Source: a virus
Length of the DNA stretch: 22,193 nucleotides
Reading direction: 5' to 3' (one strand)
IMG/VR virus record: IMGVR_UViG_3300031539_003696
Coordinates: 1-22,193 of that record
Below, piece by piece: positions 15,952 to 21,595 of the stretch (position 1 is its first letter; every line of letters starts with the position of its first letter). Made by a program: the position numbers and the translations under genes. The notes under the pieces were generated by a model. The model searched no databases. It was not told the origin of the DNA and worked only from the letters and a program-made list of their open reading frames with translations.

Positions 15952-16354
15952 AGAACCTAAAGTTACTGTGTTTTATGAAAGAGCATTTACAGATGATACT
16001 GGAAAACATATTCCAGAGCTATTAAGTAAAAATAATTATGATAGTATTTGTATAAAATCATATTGGGGAAATATTGTAGATGCTTTTTTTAGATATACGT
16101 GTTTGTTTATGTTTACAGCAATTGAAGGTGATTTTAGAATTGTAATACCATATGAACATGGCACTGCATATAAATTTAATCAATTTTTTATTTCAGGATT
16201 TGATGGTAAAGTAATTAAAATACCAAAAAACACATGGTTTGGGATTAATAACCTAACAAACGATATTGGATCTATATTAATAGCACGAATAGGCGATGAA
16301 ACAAAAGTAGATATGCTTGACGCATCTATTTTTGATTGGTATTCAAAGCATTAA
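15944..16354 (+). CDS. Cupin-fold protein resembling dTDP-sugar 3,5-epimerase (RmlC-like), 136 aa
   Basis: The sequence follows the beta-strand order of RmlC-like cupins: DDTGKHIPELL near 17-27, KSYWGNIVDAFFRY near 38-51, MFTAIEGDFRIVI near 56-68, FFISGFDGKVIKIPKNTWFGINNL near 81-104, then a final strand. The IPKNTWFGINNL part matches the usual iP-x-G-x-aHGf-x-L segment, but the catalytic-type His is absent, so enzyme activity is doubtful. It could be a structural or sugar-binding cupin. The start overlaps the upstream stop, so the two genes form one unit. The last 29 nt overlap the HNH gene on the other strand. Confidence 0.6.
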   Translation: MNEEPKVTVFYERAFTDDTGKHIPELLSKNNYDSICIKSYWGNIVDAFFRYTCLFMFTAIEGDFRIVIPYEHGTAYKFNQFFISGFDGKVIKIPKNTWFGINNLTNDIGSILIARIGDETKVDMLDASIFDWYSKH

Positions 16355-16790
16355 TATCTATTAACGTATTACTACGTAACAAAAACAATTCAATAGACAT
16401 TTTTTTTGCTCTTGCAAACTCATGTATCAATTGTTTAGTATCAGTTATAAGCGATTTATTACCACTATATATCATCATAAGTCTACTAATAATAGCATAT
16501 TCTCTAATATATGGATTATAGCATGATTTAAAATTTCCAAAATGTCCTTGGTATTTATGACATGAACAATTGTTAGGACCATCACACAATGTAATAAAAT
16601 TGTTTGGATCACAAGCTACCGCTGGAAAGTTATGTACGGGTAAACAATGATGCACTTCTAAATATTTTGTATTACCACAAACAGCACAAACCGGATGCGT
16701 TTTAACATATGCACGTTTTGCTTTTGTCATTTGCCATTGTGTAGGAATAGACAATGCATTAAAATTAATATATAATCGGTTTAAATCCAT
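16326..16790 (-). CDS. HNH endonuclease-like protein, 154 aa
   Basis: A zinc-bound HNH module is visible: CAVCG (35-39), LEVHHCLPVH (44-53), DPNNFITLC (61-69), and CSCHKYQGHFGNFKS (75-89). This is the common phage HNH layout CxxC, HH, N, CH, GHxGNxKS. Such proteins cut DNA with a metal ion; many are free-standing homing or packaging-associated nucleases. Residues 92-154 are a helical C-terminal region. The start overlaps the stop of the 118-aa gene as TAATG, so it belongs to the operon beginning at 17569. It converges on and overlaps the cupin gene. Confidence 0.85.
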   Translation of the reverse strand: MDLNRLYINFNALSIPTQWQMTKAKRAYVKTHPVCAVCGNTKYLEVHHCLPVHNFPAVACDPNNFITLCDGPNNCSCHKYQGHFGNFKSCYNPYIREYAIISRLMMIYSGNKSLITDTKQLIHEFARAKKMSIELFLLRSNTLIDINALNTNQK

Positions 16791-17569: not shown

Positions 17570-17571
17570 TA

Positions 17572-17579
17572 TATAAATA
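17572..17579 (+). promoter_or_regulatory. Candidate T4-type late promoter box TATAAATA
   Basis: Perfect late box on the plus strand in the divergent gap (17570-17660), 82 nt before the Sel1-repeat gene. The shared context TATAAATATTTA followed by MCC also occurs at 10284. A separate sigma70-type promoter lies just downstream at 17609, so the Sel1 gene may be read both early and late. Confidence 0.4.
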
Positions 17580-17608
17580 TTTACCCATTTTACCGTAATT
17601 ATGATAAT

Positions 17609-17636
17609 TTGACTTTGCTAAAAAACGTGATATAAT
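17609..17636 (+). promoter_or_regulatory. Sigma70-type promoter for the Sel1-repeat gene
   Basis: TTGACT (17609-17614), a 16-nt spacer and a perfect TATAAT (17631-17636) lie 24 nt upstream of the ATG, with AAGGAT between. This is the best bacterial consensus promoter in the window, suggesting expression by the unmodified host polymerase early in infection. Confidence 0.65.
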
Positions 17637-17660
17637 ATAATTAATAATAAGGATAGCTAA

Positions 17661-18101
17661 ATGAATACTAAAAAACCAAAGAAAAACGTAAAAAAATCAA
17701 TAGATATAAAGTTTAAAGGTAAAAACGTTACCGAAAAACTAGAATGGTTTTTTAGTAATGTTTTTTATTGTTTAGAAGATGCCTCAAATAACAATTATAC
17801 CCCATTAATATCTTTAACAAAAAACATTGCTAACAGTGGTAGTATATTAGCCACATACAACCTTGGTATGATATATAAGGAAGGAATTGGGGTGATTCCT
17901 AATATGGAACAAGCTGTTACATATTTTAATAATGCTTCAATACAAGGCTATAGTCCAGCAATGGTAGAACTCGCATTTGCATATCTTTCTGGTTCTGGTA
18001 TACAAAAGGATAAAAAAACTGCTATTGCTTGGTTACGAAAAGCTATTGATAATGATTATGAACCAGCCCAAGAAATATTAACTGATATACTTACTAATTA
18101 A
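17661..18101 (+). CDS. Sel1-repeat (TPR-like) protein, 146 aa
   Basis: Two Sel1-like repeats are visible. The first is about 62-96 (ATYNLGMIYKEGIGV then EQAVTYFNNASIQG). The second is about 98-132 (AMVELAFAYLSGSGI then KKTAIAWLRKAIDN). Both show the family's LGxxYxxGxGVxxDxxxAxxWxxxAA pattern. The N-terminus is basic (KKPKKNVKKS) with no signal peptide. Sel1 repeats form a helical scaffold for protein contacts. The early-type promoter suggests a role in takeover of the host cell, but the partner is unknown. The stop shares TTAA with the stop of the split minus-strand gene. Confidence 0.88.
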   Translation: MNTKKPKKNVKKSIDIKFKGKNVTEKLEWFFSNVFYCLEDASNNNYTPLISLTKNIANSGSILATYNLGMIYKEGIGVIPNMEQAVTYFNNASIQGYSPAMVELAFAYLSGSGIQKDKKTAIAWLRKAIDNDYEPAQEILTDILTN

Positions 18102-18178
18102 TCTAAATTATCAATCCAATCCCAAAACTCGTCAATTTGATCTTCTCTCAACGGGGTAAAAATTCGCCCTTTAAGTTT
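18098..18178 (-). pseudogene. 3' part of a small gene split by the TnpB element
   Basis: A minus-strand reading frame ends at 18098 and encodes a C-terminus KLKGRIFTPLREDQ then IDEFWDWIDNLD, without any start codon on this side. The frame hits a stop inside the element's left hairpin. Joining it to the piece at 19503-19532 across the shared AGTTT restores one open frame. Function unknown; the tail is acidic and aromatic. Confidence 0.7.
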
Positions 18179-18197
18179 TATACAGTGGAGCGTAAAA

Positions 18198-18220
18198 CCA
18201 CGACATCTTTAGTGTCGTGG
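18198..18220 (+). repeat. Left-end hairpin of the TnpB element
   Basis: An 8-bp perfect stem CCACGACA / TGTCGTGG with loop TCTTTAG. It is followed by ATGTAAGCGAC, a left-end context I recall from other IS1341-type elements. TnpA of this superfamily binds such end hairpins. Confidence 0.85.
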
Positions 18221-18305
18221 ATGTAAGCGACAACTAAAAATACTTAAAAATAATCAAAGAAATAAGAAGGAAAAGACTAAATAGTTATAGAAGTAGATTG
18301 GTAGA

Positions 18306-19499
18306 ATGAAACTAATAGCATATAAATATAGATTATATCCAAACAAAAACCAAAGAGTTTTGCTTGAAAAACATTTTGGTTCCAATAGATTCATATATAA
18401 CTATTTTCTTCAAAGAAAGATAGAGTATTATAAGAAAACAAAGAAAACTATAGGTTGGTGCGAACTAGCAAATGAACTCAAGCCTCTCAAGGAAAAATAT
18501 GATTGGCTTAATGAAGTAGGAAGCCAATCATTACAGCAAACAGTCAGGCATCTTGATAATGCATATACTAATTTCTTTCGGTCTAATATGAGTTTTCCTA
18601 AGTTTAAGTCTAAAAAGAATAATAAGCACTCCTTTACTATTCCTGAACCTAAATCAATAAGAGTAGATTTTGACAAGAAACGTCTATATATCCCTAAATT
18701 CATAAACACAAAGAATAGCGATAATAGACTAAAATGTATCTTCGACAGAGAGTTTGACGGAGAAATCAAACAATGTACGGCTTCCAGACATGTTGATAAG
18801 TATTATGTATCTATTTTAGTAGAGCAAAACATAGAATTGCCAACTAAACCAGAAATGAAAAGAGATAAAGCGATAGGTATTGATTTTGGAGTTAAAACAT
18901 TTACTACGTTTGATAATGGTGAAAAGGTAGAATCTCCTAGGTTCTTTAAGCAGGCTCAGGATAAGTTAGCAAAACATCAACAAGAACTAGAGAAACTAAC
19001 AAAGTGGTCTACTTGTTATATTTCTAAAAAAGAGCAAATAAGTAAACTACATGCTAAAATAGGTAGACAGCGTAAAGATTTTCTGGATAAGTTATCATAT
19101 AGGTTGACTCACGATAGCCAAGTAGAGACGATTTGTATTGAAGACTTATCTATTAAAAAAATGCAAAGGGATAATGAGAAGCCAACAAACAGAATTATTG
19201 GAGATATGGGATGGTATAATTTTACCAGACTACTTCAATATAAGTCGGATTGGTATGGTAAGAACTTCATTAAAATAGGAAGATTTGAACCATCCAGTAA
19301 AACTTGTTCTGTTTGCGGCAATATATATCATGAGTTAAGAAGAGATGAAAGAGAGTGGACTTGCCAAAAATGTAATACTCATCATGATAGAGACATTAAC
19401 GCCGCTCAGAACATTAAAGACTTTGCGTTTACAAAAATGAGTTTCAAAAAGGGTAGGGACTATCCTATAGAAACCCAACGATCTTTAGTCGTTGGGTAG
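18306..19499 (+). CDS. tnpB: TnpB, RNA-guided nuclease of IS200/IS605-type elements
   Basis: 397 aa, close to the typical length of about 400. The N-terminus MKLIAYKYRLYPNKNQ is the family start, with the helix-turn-helix-like region in the first 100 residues. The RuvC triad is D193 (GIDFG), E279 (IEDL) and D361/D363 (HHDRDINAAQNI). The zinc ribbon is CSVC (334-337) and CQKC (353-356). All key residues are present, so the nuclease looks functional. TnpB cuts DNA next to a target-adjacent motif, guided by an RNA from the element's right end; this helps the element persist. The ribosome site is weak (TTGGTAG). Codon choice (more AAG, AGG) differs from neighbouring phage genes, consistent with transfer. 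Confidence 0.97.
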   Translation: MKLIAYKYRLYPNKNQRVLLEKHFGSNRFIYNYFLQRKIEYYKKTKKTIGWCELANELKPLKEKYDWLNEVGSQSLQQTVRHLDNAYTNFFRSNMSFPKFKSKKNNKHSFTIPEPKSIRVDFDKKRLYIPKFINTKNSDNRLKCIFDREFDGEIKQCTASRHVDKYYVSILVEQNIELPTKPEMKRDKAIGIDFGVKTFTTFDNGEKVESPRFFKQAQDKLAKHQQELEKLTKWSTCYISKKEQISKLHAKIGRQRKDFLDKLSYRLTHDSQVETICIEDLSIKKMQRDNEKPTNRIIGDMGWYNFTRLLQYKSDWYGKNFIKIGRFEPSSKTCSVCGNIYHELRRDEREWTCQKCNTHHDRDINAAQNIKDFAFTKMSFKKGRDYPIETQRSLVVG

Positions 19500-19518
19500 T
19501 TCATTCTATTACCAGATA
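19380..19518 (+). ncRNA. Predicted omega RNA (reRNA) at the 3' end of tnpB; limits approximate
   Basis: In characterised TnpB elements the guide RNA comes from the 3' end of tnpB plus the right end, with the guide being the first ~16-20 bases outside the element. Here the right hairpin (19473-19497) lies at the tnpB stop and the predicted right end is 19502. The native guide would then begin CATTCTATTACCAGAT at 19503. The 5' limit is not visible from sequence and is only a rough guess. Confidence 0.55.
19473..19497 (+). repeat. Right-end hairpin of the TnpB element
   Basis: A 9-bp perfect stem ACCCAACGA / TCGTTGGGT with loop TCTTTAG, the same loop as the left hairpin although the stems differ. 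It encodes the last TnpB residues and the first base of the stop. Confidence 0.85.
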
Positions 19519-19532
19519 TGACCCATAACATT
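19503..19532 (-). pseudogene. 5' part of the small gene split by the TnpB element
   Basis: On the minus strand an ATG at 19532 is preceded, 8 nt upstream, by GGAAGT, a good ribosome site. The frame reads MLWVISGNRM up to the element. Removing 18179-19502 fuses it in frame to KLKGRIF and the 3' part, giving 36 codons. A shorter start at the Met before KLKG is possible. The gene would follow the 62-aa gene after about 44 nt. Confidence 0.6.
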
Positions 19533-19576
19533 CTAGGAGACTTCCATGTTATTATAAACGGTTTCCAAAGTTTCTT

Positions 19577-19765
19577 TTAAAAATCTCTACGTTCACAAAC
19601 AGCGTCAATACCATCTTCATAGTCTTCAAGTTCTGTTATAGCATTTTTTAGTGAATCATTAGAAGAATTCTCGTCCGTGTATACACCATTAATAAATTTG
19701 TTTAACAAATTTCCCGTAAGATAGTATCGTATTTGTTCAATAGTAAATGTTTTTTCGTTTGACAT
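19577..19765 (-). CDS. Small acidic protein of unknown function, 62 aa
   Basis: AAAGGAT lies 6 nt before the ATG. The protein is acidic and mostly helical: FTIEQIRYYLTGNLLNKFI, then ELEDYEDGIDAVCERRDF at the C-terminus. I recall similar short phage proteins ending in an EDGIxAVCER-type motif but cannot name a family. It lies between the Cys-rich 64-aa gene and the interrupted small gene, and the three were probably one transcription unit before the insertion. Confidence 0.7.
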   Translation of the reverse strand: MSNEKTFTIEQIRYYLTGNLLNKFINGVYTDENSSNDSLKNAITELEDYEDGIDAVCERRDF

Positions 19766-19804
19766 AATTATCCTTTAAAGATCATTCTTGCTGAAAACAT
19801 AAGG

Positions 19805-19999
19805 TTATCCTAGTTTACCATTAAAACGAGGACAACTTTCTTCTATACAATCTCCATCTTCACTATCTTCATGCATACAATGAACTCCAATTGCACAATA
19901 TGGACAATCGCAATAATCTTTTTCTTTACAATTTTTAACGTTAATTCTATTTTCCCATATTATTTTTTTGCTTTTAGTTTTATTTTTTCTTTTTTTCAT
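19805..19999 (-). CDS. Small Cys-rich basic-headed protein, 64 aa
   Basis: Basic N-terminus (MKKRKNKTKSKK), then a Cys-rich region: C24, C30, C32, C35, C42, C50 and C56 with H41 and H43, in an order KDYCDCPYC, HCMH, DGDC, ESC. This could hold one or two zinc ions. No family was recognised. There is no Shine-Dalgarno sequence; a TATTAT box ends 6 nt before the ATG, predicting transcription from the A of the ATG. The TATAAATA late box also overlaps the start codon. It is the first gene after the capsid terminator. Confidence 0.65.
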   Translation of the reverse strand: MKKRKNKTKSKKIIWENRINVKNCKEKDYCDCPYCAIGVHCMHEDSEDGDCIEESCPRFNGKLG

Positions 20000-20005
20000 A
20001 TTTAT

Positions 20006-20033
20006 ATAATATCATACCTGGATTAAAAATCAA
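20006..20033 (-). promoter_or_regulatory. Sigma70-type promoter predicted to make a leaderless mRNA
   Basis: On the minus strand TTGATT (20033-20028), a 16-nt spacer and TATTAT (20011-20006) precede the ATG at 19999 by 6 nt. The promoter begins right after the T-run of the capsid-gene terminator. A TATAAATA late box at 20006-19999 overlaps the same -10 region and its last base is the A of the ATG. Confidence 0.55.
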
Positions 20034-20034
20034 C

Positions 20035-20069
20035 AAAAAAATCAGGCACCCTTTTGAGGTGCCTGATTT
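20035..20069 (-). terminator. Rho-independent terminator of the major capsid gene
   Basis: A 12-bp perfect stem (20039-20050 with 20058-20069, core CAGGCACC) has a 7-nt loop. On the minus strand it is followed by a run of T residues (20041-20035). It lies 36 nt after the capsid stop and is the only strong intrinsic terminator I found in the window. Confidence 0.92.
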
Positions 20070-20104
20070 AATATACTTACAATCTCTGTAAGACGTTAAT
20101 AGAC

Positions 20105-21595
20105 TTATAGATATGTATGAGCAGATCCTGGGGCAAATGATTGTCCAAGACCCTTACAGATTATAACATGGTAGTACAAATCTGCGCCAAACAAGTTATC
20201 TACTACACCATAACGAGTAAGCAAGCCTACTCTTGGTGCAAAGTCATTAGGTCCTATTGTACGCTGTATCATAACCGGAATGTATGGACAGTAAATAATA
20301 CCAGTGTCATAATACTCTGATCCTTTGTAACCTAACAGAGCATATTCCAAATTGGCACGTTTACCAATCATCCATTGCGACTCTGTACGTGTGTCACGAT
20401 AAACACTAAAACGACCACCTATTGAACCTACCTTAGCAATTCCAACAGGTTGCGTGTTAACGTTACCATTAACATCCATGAACTTGAAGTCGGGCATCAT
20501 TTCAAGTATGGCACATACTCGTGGTGTTGCTACTATAAAGTTAGCAGCACCTCTACGGTTACGAATAGCTACTCTATTCGCTTCAACAATAACCTTGGCA
20601 TAAAAGTCACGGTTACGTTCACCAAGCCAACGAGCGTCAGCACATGCAGCGTACCAAAGTGAATAACCTTGGTTTACGCCAGCGTTAAGAGCTACTTGAA
20701 CCATACGCATAATCATTTCACGGTCAATTTCAGCCTGAATTTCATAACTCATAGCGTTAGTCATTTCAGCATCAATATCAATACCGTTCATATTACGGAT
20801 ATCTTGTTCAAGTTCTACACTCCACTTGGCTGCTAATCTACGGGTACCAGCTTCTACAGCGGTCTTCTCGAATGAGATTTCCATCTGAGGAATCATGCTA
20901 GTAAATTCGAAGTTAGCCAAAATGTCTGCGACACCATCATCTTCACCGATGAAGTCAAAGTCTGAACCCGATGATCCAAGACCACTAAGACCAGCAGAAG
21001 ATGTACCAGTAAATCTGGTATCAAGGTTCTGATAACCCATTTCATCCGAGTTTGTACCCCAACCAGTAACGCCACTAAAGTTCATGGCACCACCAGTGTT
21101 AGTCAAACCGTATGCATGGTCAGGGACTGTTCCACCGTCTTGGTATTGTTGTGCTCCAGAGGAACCAACTTGACCAAGAGAGTTTTGCTGATACTTGTAA
21201 CGCAATGCGAAAGCAAGACCAACAGGTCCACTCATTGGCTGAACGCCGACAATTTCATTCGTAATAAGTTCTGGGAACGTCCTACGAATCATAGGAATCA
21301 ATACTTTTGGCAAACGAGCGTCACCTTGTGCGTAGAAGTCAGAATTACCAACACTACCACCCTGTCCTGGTGTACCCTGAAGGGTTGTACCAAAAACACC
21401 GCCGTCTGAACCTACGTTAGCTTCTGTAAGACACCAATGCTCTTGGTTCTCAAGAAGAATAGCAGTATTTAGACGTGTATGGTCATCAGTAATAGCCTTT
21501 ACACTAGGGGATTCATAATTAAGAATTTCTCCCCACTTTGCAACAAGTTCGCTTGCTCTATCTTTATTAATATAATTTGGTCCAGGTTTAATCAT
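20105..21595 (-). CDS. 23: Major capsid protein, gp23-like
   Basis: 496 aa against 521 for T4 gp23. The N-terminal ~58 residues are a likely propeptide: ENQEHWCLTEAN holds L56-T57-E58 before A59, matching the (I/L)-x-E cleavage rule of the T4 prohead protease gp21. A FAQ-like FYAQGDARLPKVLIPMIRRTFPELI segment (about 86-110) and a GPVGLAFALRYKY segment (about 123-135) are typical of the family; GPNDFAPRVGLLTRYGVVDN near 450 is the conserved C-terminal part. It forms the hexamers of the head. AAGGAGA lies 10 nt before the ATG. Codon use is less AT-biased than its neighbours, fitting high expression, and a dedicated terminator follows. Confidence 0.97.
   Translation of the reverse strand: MIKPGPNYINKDRASELVAKWGEILNYESPSVKAITDDHTRLNTAILLENQEHWCLTEANVGSDGGVFGTTLQGTPGQGGSVGNSDFYAQGDARLPKVLIPMIRRTFPELITNEIVGVQPMSGPVGLAFALRYKYQQNSLGQVGSSGAQQYQDGGTVPDHAYGLTNTGGAMNFSGVTGWGTNSDEMGYQNLDTRFTGTSSAGLSGLGSSGSDFDFIGEDDGVADILANFEFTSMIPQMEISFEKTAVEAGTRRLAAKWSVELEQDIRNMNGIDIDAEMTNAMSYEIQAEIDREMIMRMVQVALNAGVNQGYSLWYAACADARWLGERNRDFYAKVIVEANRVAIRNRRGAANFIVATPRVCAILEMMPDFKFMDVNGNVNTQPVGIAKVGSIGGRFSVYRDTRTESQWMIGKRANLEYALLGYKGSEYYDTGIIYCPYIPVMIQRTIGPNDFAPRVGLLTRYGVVDNLFGADLYYHVIICKGLGQSFAPGSAHTYL

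What the first reader, a model, noticed from the sequence alone, without database searches (positions are those of the whole stretch)
18174..19502. Precise insertion of a TnpB element into a small phage gene, with the empty site readable
The pentamer AGTTT flanks both ends (18174-18178 and 19498-19502). Deleting 18179-19502 leaves one AGTTT and joins two minus-strand pieces in the same frame into an intact 36-codon gene with a ribosome site (GGAAGT, 8-nt spacing) and a stop at 18098. In-frame restoration argues that these are the true ends. This defines the target motif as ending in AGTTT (upstream context CTTTAAGTTT), which is also a prediction for the TnpB target-adjacent motif.
Basis: partly seen in the sequence, partly recalled or inferred. 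Interest (0 to 1): 0.75.

Follow-up and report, generated by a model that had tools for sequence, protein, structure and literature searches.

The report
TnpB transposon inside tiny phage gene
A common kind of small jumping element (TnpB-only IS200/IS605) has landed inside a tiny gene of a T4-like phage; its real ends and target word (TTTAT) can be read from the sequence, but they are not the ones first proposed (AGTTT).

Summary
There is a TnpB-only IS200/IS605 element here, and it does appear to split a small minus-strand phage gene. The ends, target motif and flanking repeat in the finding are wrong. AGTTT is present at 18174-18178, but 19498-19502 is AGTTC, and deleting 18179-19502 (1324 nt) destroys the frame. 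About a third of all nearby cut pairs restore the frame, so frame alone proves little. The ends are set by the family's own DNA rule, in which a 4-nt 'guide' next to each end hairpin pairs with the cleavage site. At the right end 44 of 45 relatives obey the rule. The window is the only row of a 13-row alignment to change both partner positions (GAAG/TTCAC to GAAA/TTCAT), so the element includes T19504. At the left end, TTTAT lies exactly 12 nt before AAAA plus the hairpin in the window and four relatives. The element is therefore 18182-19504 (1323 bp), inserted 3' of TTTAT (18177-18181), the likely TAM. Removing it gives a 36-codon frame whose left piece has clear coding bias. No empty-site relative was found. 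This is a new member of a known kind; TnpB-only elements in T4-like phages are already reported.

The parts
18182..19504 (+). TnpB-only IS200/IS605 element, 1323 bp, revised ends
   Evidence: Guide/cleavage-site rule and comparison with relatives; length divisible by 3
18177..18181 (+). Target / left cleavage site CL = TTTAT; predicted TnpB TAM
   Evidence: Fixed 12-nt spacing to AAAACC in the window, L089, L090, L096, L172; pairs with GL AAAA by the IS608 rule (PMC5934647)
18194..18197 (+). Left guide GL = AAAA
   Evidence: Directly 5' of the LE hairpin
18198..18220 (+). Left-end hairpin, 9-bp stem
   Evidence: ssDNA fold of the left end, z = -2.6
18306..19499 (+). tnpB, 397 aa; RuvC residues D193, E279, D363 and four zinc-ribbon cysteines (C334, C337, C353, C356) intact
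   Evidence: Pfam PF07282, PF01385, PF12323; NCBIfam NF040570 300 bits against cut-off 100; invariant columns of A1; ISDra2 TnpB structures E = 5e-55
19470..19473 (+). Right guide GR = GAAA
   Evidence: GAAG in the other 12 rows of A2; changed together with the last base of CR
19474..19496 (+). Right-end hairpin CCCAACGATCTTTAGTCGTTGGG (expected 3' part of the omega-RNA)
   Evidence: ssDNA fold z = -4.9; 7 of 13 consensus pairs with compensatory changes in 13 relatives
19500..19504 (+). Right cleavage site CR = TTCAT (TTCAC in most close relatives)
19505..19524 (+). Predicted omega-RNA guide (about 16-20 nt of right flank), TCTATTACCAGATATGACCC
   Evidence: Inference from the ISDra2 mechanism (PMC8612924); sequence
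19505..19531 (-). 5' piece of the interrupted small gene (MLWVISGNR), RBS GGAAGT at 19540-19545
   Evidence: Best-scoring of three frames, but only 9 codons
18098..18181 (-). 3' piece of the interrupted small gene (IKLKGRIFTPLREDQIDEFWDWIDNLD, stop at 18098-18100)
   Evidence: Codon-usage score +5.7 against -13 to -23 for the other five frames

Best explanation
A TnpA-less (IS1341-like) IS200/IS605 element of 1323 bp, 18182-19504, inserted 3' of a TTTAT word in a 36-codon minus-strand gene downstream of the major capsid gene of a T4-like phage. A Y1 transposase (TnpA) supplied in trans would have recognised the end hairpins as single-stranded DNA, cut after TTTAT and after TTCAT through guide/cleavage-site pairing, and joined the element without target duplication. 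TnpB with an omega-RNA from the right end, using the right flank as guide and TTTAT as TAM, would cut the empty site and let recombination copy the element back. Supported by sequence comparison: the family, end structures, end positions and likely gene interruption. Inferred: activity, trans TnpA, TAM use and homing.
For: Family. Right end: GR base 4 and CR base 5 are Watson-Crick partners in 44 of 45 loci (null mean 21.4, maximum 34 in 20,000 shuffles; relatedness of the loci not corrected for): GAAT/GTCAA 25, GAAG/TTCAC 15, GAAA/TTCAT 2 (window and the cyanobacterial locus L103). In the 13-row alignment the only two nearly invariant columns are these two, and the window is the exception in both. 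The TTCAC motif is followed by unrelated flanks at different insertion sites, so the fifth base belongs to the element. Left end: TTTAT-12 nt-AAAACC in five elements; TTTAC with AAAG in L093 and L162; in the multicopy Muribaculaceae relative all 11 listed copies begin NTTAC. Deleting 18182-19504 joins the two pieces in frame into 36 codons; joined ORF coding score +6.3 against null mean -7.4 (0.24% of random ORFs as high).
Against: No empty-site relative was found, so the insertion is inferred, not seen. All three contigs of this phage carry the identical element and are near-clonal. The right piece of the gene is only 9 codons, and frame restoration has a 1-in-3 chance level. No TnpA was found in any of the ten records searched, all possibly fragments.
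Confidence: 0.9

Rival explanations
1. One reading: element 18179-19502 with AGTTT as duplicated flank, target and TAM.
For: AGTTT at the left and AGTT at the right; 18179-19501, one base shorter, restores a 36-codon frame.
Against: The right-hand word is AGTTC; the stated deletion breaks the frame; the family makes no target duplication (PMC8612924); left spacing and covariation point elsewhere.
Confidence: 0.02
2. Target TTTAA: element 18175-19503 (GTTTTATAC...TAGTTCA), 1329 bp, restoring a 34-codon gene.
For: In frame; TTTAA is a plausible target word by general knowledge of the family.
Against: Spacing to the guide would be 19 nt instead of 12; the last A would mispair with GL AAAA; it leaves out the conserved fifth base of the right cleavage site.
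Confidence: 0.05
3. Same element, but it lies between genes: the split 36-codon frame is a chance ORF and no gene is interrupted.
For: No homologue of the 36-aa protein found; short; frame chance 1/3.
Against: Strong codon bias of the 27-codon left piece in this one frame; RBS; the gene would sit snugly between the 62-aa gene and the convergent Sel1-like gene.
Confidence: 0.2
4. A domesticated, non-mobile TnpB or a TldR-like RNA-guided repressor kept for a phage function.
For: No TnpA in the searched records; phage-encoded TldR proteins exist (PMC13418256).
Against: Catalytic RuvC residues and both complete ends are intact.
Confidence: 0.05

Closest known systems
ISCaje1-3, TnpB-only IS200/IS605 elements of the Campylobacter phages CP220 and CPt10 (PMC2853527)
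   Same: TnpB-only IS200/IS605 elements in virulent phages with T4-like functions; TnpA absent
   Different: Not compared by sequence here; different hosts; that paper reports differing insertion sites, whereas here only one site is seen
ISDra2 (Deinococcus radiodurans), TnpB structures 8EX9/8BF8/8H1J
   Same: TnpB homologue over 371 residues (E = 5e-55); 5-nt target/TAM ending in AT (TTGAT); omega-RNA from the right end
   Different: ISDra2 has TnpA and TAM TTGAT; predicted here TTTAT
IS608 (Helicobacter pylori; PMC5934647)
   Same: Same guide/cleavage logic (GL AAAG/CL TTAC; GR GAAT/CR TCAA)
   Different: Here GL AAAA/CL TTTAT and GR GAAA/CR TTCAT; no TnpA
Parabacteroides phage PF672P2 TnpB (L086) and Prevotella lacticifex element (L096)
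   Same: TnpB about 41-42% identical; same right end (hairpin + TAGTTCA); L096 also has TTTAT-12 nt-AAAA
   Different: Right cleavage site TTCAC with GAAG

Membership tests
IS200/IS605, TnpB-only (IS1341-like) group | TnpB with RuvC catalytic triad and zinc ribbon | tested here: met
   D193, E279, D363 and C334, C337, C353, C356. NF038281 IS200_TnpB scores 350.7, below its 425 cut-off; NF040570 scores 300.4, above 100
IS200/IS605, TnpB-only (IS1341-like) group | Subterminal hairpins at both ends | tested here: met
IS200/IS605, TnpB-only (IS1341-like) group | 4-nt guide 5' of each hairpin complementary in the family's pattern to the cleavage site | tested here: met
   rule from PMC5934647
IS200/IS605, TnpB-only (IS1341-like) group | Insertion 3' of a fixed short motif without target duplication | tested here: inconclusive
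   Motif and absence of a repeat fit but no empty site was found
IS200/IS605, TnpB-only (IS1341-like) group | No tnpA in the element | tested here: met
   Only tnpB between the ends; no Y1_Tnp in the window or nine related records
IS200/IS605, TnpB-only (IS1341-like) group | Mobilised in trans by a Y1 transposase; omega-RNA expressed | not testable with these tools
   Needs transposition assay and RNA-seq
IS607 family | Serine recombinase TnpA; no requirement for end hairpins with guide/cleavage pairing | tested here: not met
   NF038280 IS607_TnpB scores 174 against cut-off 350; end structure is IS200/IS605-type
TldR (nuclease-dead TnpB regulators of phages) | Degraded RuvC active site | tested here: not met
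   Triad intact

The most novel reading that the evidence does not exclude
In this phage the TnpA-less element spreads between co-infecting phages as an RNA-guided homing element, TnpB cutting the empty TTTAT site in the small gene. Its right junction (TTCAT) differs from the predicted TAM (TTTAT) at one pyrimidine, so that single base would have to separate self from target.
Probability: 0.25. Interest if true: 0.45.

Novelty: new member of a known kind. Interest (0 to 1): 0.25.

Why it matters
It corrects the ends and gives a concrete, testable TAM (TTTAT) and guide for a phage TnpB. It also shows that guide/cleavage-site covariation can locate the ends of such elements when no empty site is available. 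The element itself is ordinary.

Tried and rejected
AGTTT duplication: second copy absent. TTTAA target: in frame, but wrong spacing and guide mispairing. Neighbour genes (Sel1-like, 62-aa) as anchors: only the two contigs of the same species. C-terminal motif QIDEFWDW: same species only. Rfam: no omega-RNA family matched; all hits below gathering score. Multicopy test of the Prevotella relative failed because it is single copy. A genus-wide search was malformed and not repeated. Pfam on ORFs next to the capsid gene in relatives gave no family. Automatic left-end detection was too strict to give a statistic, so the left end rests on five explicit elements plus the L093/L162 cases.

Full report
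What the window is. The window is a 22,193-bp virus record from a T4-like phage: the protein at 20105-21595 is a Gp23 major capsid protein. Two other IMG/VR contigs (L003 and L010) are the same phage: 99.7% and 99.96% identical over about 8 kb, with the element identical base for base. They add no independent evidence. A variable block lies between the capsid gene and a 62-aa gene plus small CxxC-containing (thioredoxin-like) gene. In the phage of L008 (capsid 84% identical) that block is absent; in L005-L007 it holds other ORFs.

Checking the observation. AGTTT is at 18174-18178, but 19498-19502 reads AGTTC. The longest word shared between the two ends is AGTT; two random 12-mers of this window share a 4-mer in 34% of draws. 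Deleting exactly 18179-19502 removes 1324 nt and gives a 19-residue frameshifted product; the described 36-codon product requires 18179-19501. The start codon, RBS and stop are as described. Among 750 cut pairs around the two ends, 241 restore the frame, so frame restoration is a one-in-three event and cannot choose between ends.

Family. The ORF 18306-19499 is TnpB: HTH_OrfB_IS605, OrfB_IS605 and Cas12f1-like_TNB domains; guided_TnpB 300 bits against a cut-off of 100; ISDra2 TnpB structures at E = 5e-55. RuvC residues D193, E279, D363 and zinc-ribbon cysteines are invariant in the alignment with six phage relatives. The closest relatives found are only about 40-42% identical. No Y1 transposase was found in the window or nine related records.

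Right end. In IS608 the cleavage sites are recognised by base pairing with a 4-nt guide at the foot of each hairpin: GL AAAG with CL TTAC, GR GAAT with CR TCAA (PMC5934647). From those pairs I read off the rule that the last base of the guide pairs with the last base of the cleavage site. I located right-end hairpins in TnpB loci without using this rule and tabulated the two bases: 44 of 45 loci with a GAAN guide pair, against 21.4 expected and at most 34 in 20,000 shuffles. The shuffle does not correct for relatedness of the loci. The combinations are GAAT/GTCAA (25), GAAG/TTCAC (15), GAAA/TTCAT (2), and singletons. The two GAAA/TTCAT cases are the window and a cyanobacterial locus (L103). 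In the 13-row right-end alignment, the only nearly invariant columns are exactly these two, and the window deviates in both. The hairpin has compensatory changes in 7 of 13 pairs. In L112, L121, L122 and L154 the shared sequence runs up to the fifth base and then diverges. The element therefore ends at T19504.

Left end. TTTAT followed by exactly 12 nt and AAAACC plus hairpin occurs in the window (18177), two GenBank phage elements (L089, L090), a Prevotella element (L096) and a truncated element in another viral contig (L172). L172 was fetched with a pattern that contained TTTAT and so is not independent; L089, L090 and L096 were fetched through TnpB. Where the guide is AAAG (L093, L162) the site is TTTAC. 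In the multicopy Muribaculaceae relative all 11 listed copies start NTTAC. The alternative TTTAA would put the spacing at 19 and mispair its last base; AGTTT has no support. The left boundary is therefore 18181|18182.

The element and its target. The element is 18182-19504, 1323 bp. Removing it leaves ...AAGTTTTAT|TCTATTACC... and the 36-codon frame MLWVISGNRIKLKGRIFTPLREDQIDEFWDWIDNLD. The 27-codon left piece scores +5.7 in this frame and -13 to -23 in the other five; the 9-codon right piece also scores best in its proposed frame, but it is too short to carry weight. The joined ORF scores +6.3, against a random mean of -7.4 (0.24% as high) and a real-gene mean of 11.6 (7th percentile). In the filled allele the ATG reads only 23 codons. 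I consider a true gene interruption likely (about 0.75 to 0.8) but not shown.

How it works. Inferred from ISDra2 and IS608 (PMC8612924, PMC5934647): single-strand excision and insertion 3' of TTTAT by a TnpA in trans, no target duplication, an omega-RNA from the right end with the first 16-20 nt of right flank as guide (TCTATTACCAGATATGACCC), and TnpB cutting the re-formed empty site next to TTTAT so that recombination restores the element. The filled right junction reads TTCAT, one base from the predicted TAM; the close relatives with TTCAC differ at two. Whether one pyrimidine is enough to protect the filled site is a clean experimental question.

Empty site. Searches of IMG/VR viral contigs and GenBank phages for the joined site, the small protein or its neighbours found only the same phage species with the element in place. 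The central prediction of the finding therefore remains untested.

Novelty. TnpB-only IS200/IS605 elements in virulent phages with T4-like functions are published (ISCaje1-3, PMC2853527). This is a new, divergent member of a known kind.

Noticed in passing
L172:13326-13581 (L173 has the same): Another viral contig carries a truncated relative: a complete TTTAT/left-end hairpin and about the first 35 codons of a TnpB, running directly into an adjacent phage gene.
   Followed up: partly
L122:5176-5226: A 51-bp mini-element beside a full TnpB element: the outer left end fused to the right-end hairpin and TAGTTCAC, like a palindrome-associated miniature derivative.
   Followed up: partly
Between the capsid gene and the 62-aa/thioredoxin-like genes: window 17570-20104; L005:7606-9059; L006:7634-8233; L007:7592-9550: The same block is occupied by unrelated ORFs in each relative and nearly absent in L008. 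Several have cysteine-rich, HNH-like looks but no Pfam match; possibly a hotspot for mobile endonuclease genes.
   Followed up: partly
18177-18181 and 19500-19504: The filled right junction (TTCAT) differs from the predicted TAM (TTTAT) by a single base, whereas the close relatives with TTCAC differ at two.
   Followed up: no
17607-17676: The upstream region and start of the Sel1-repeat gene differ between near-clonal phages (window/L010 against L003/L175) by a cluster of substitutions and indels, while flanks are nearly identical.
   Followed up: no
16326-16790: Small minus-strand gene with HNH-like CxxC/VHH residues, conserved in L006 (8893-9246), no Pfam match.
   Followed up: no
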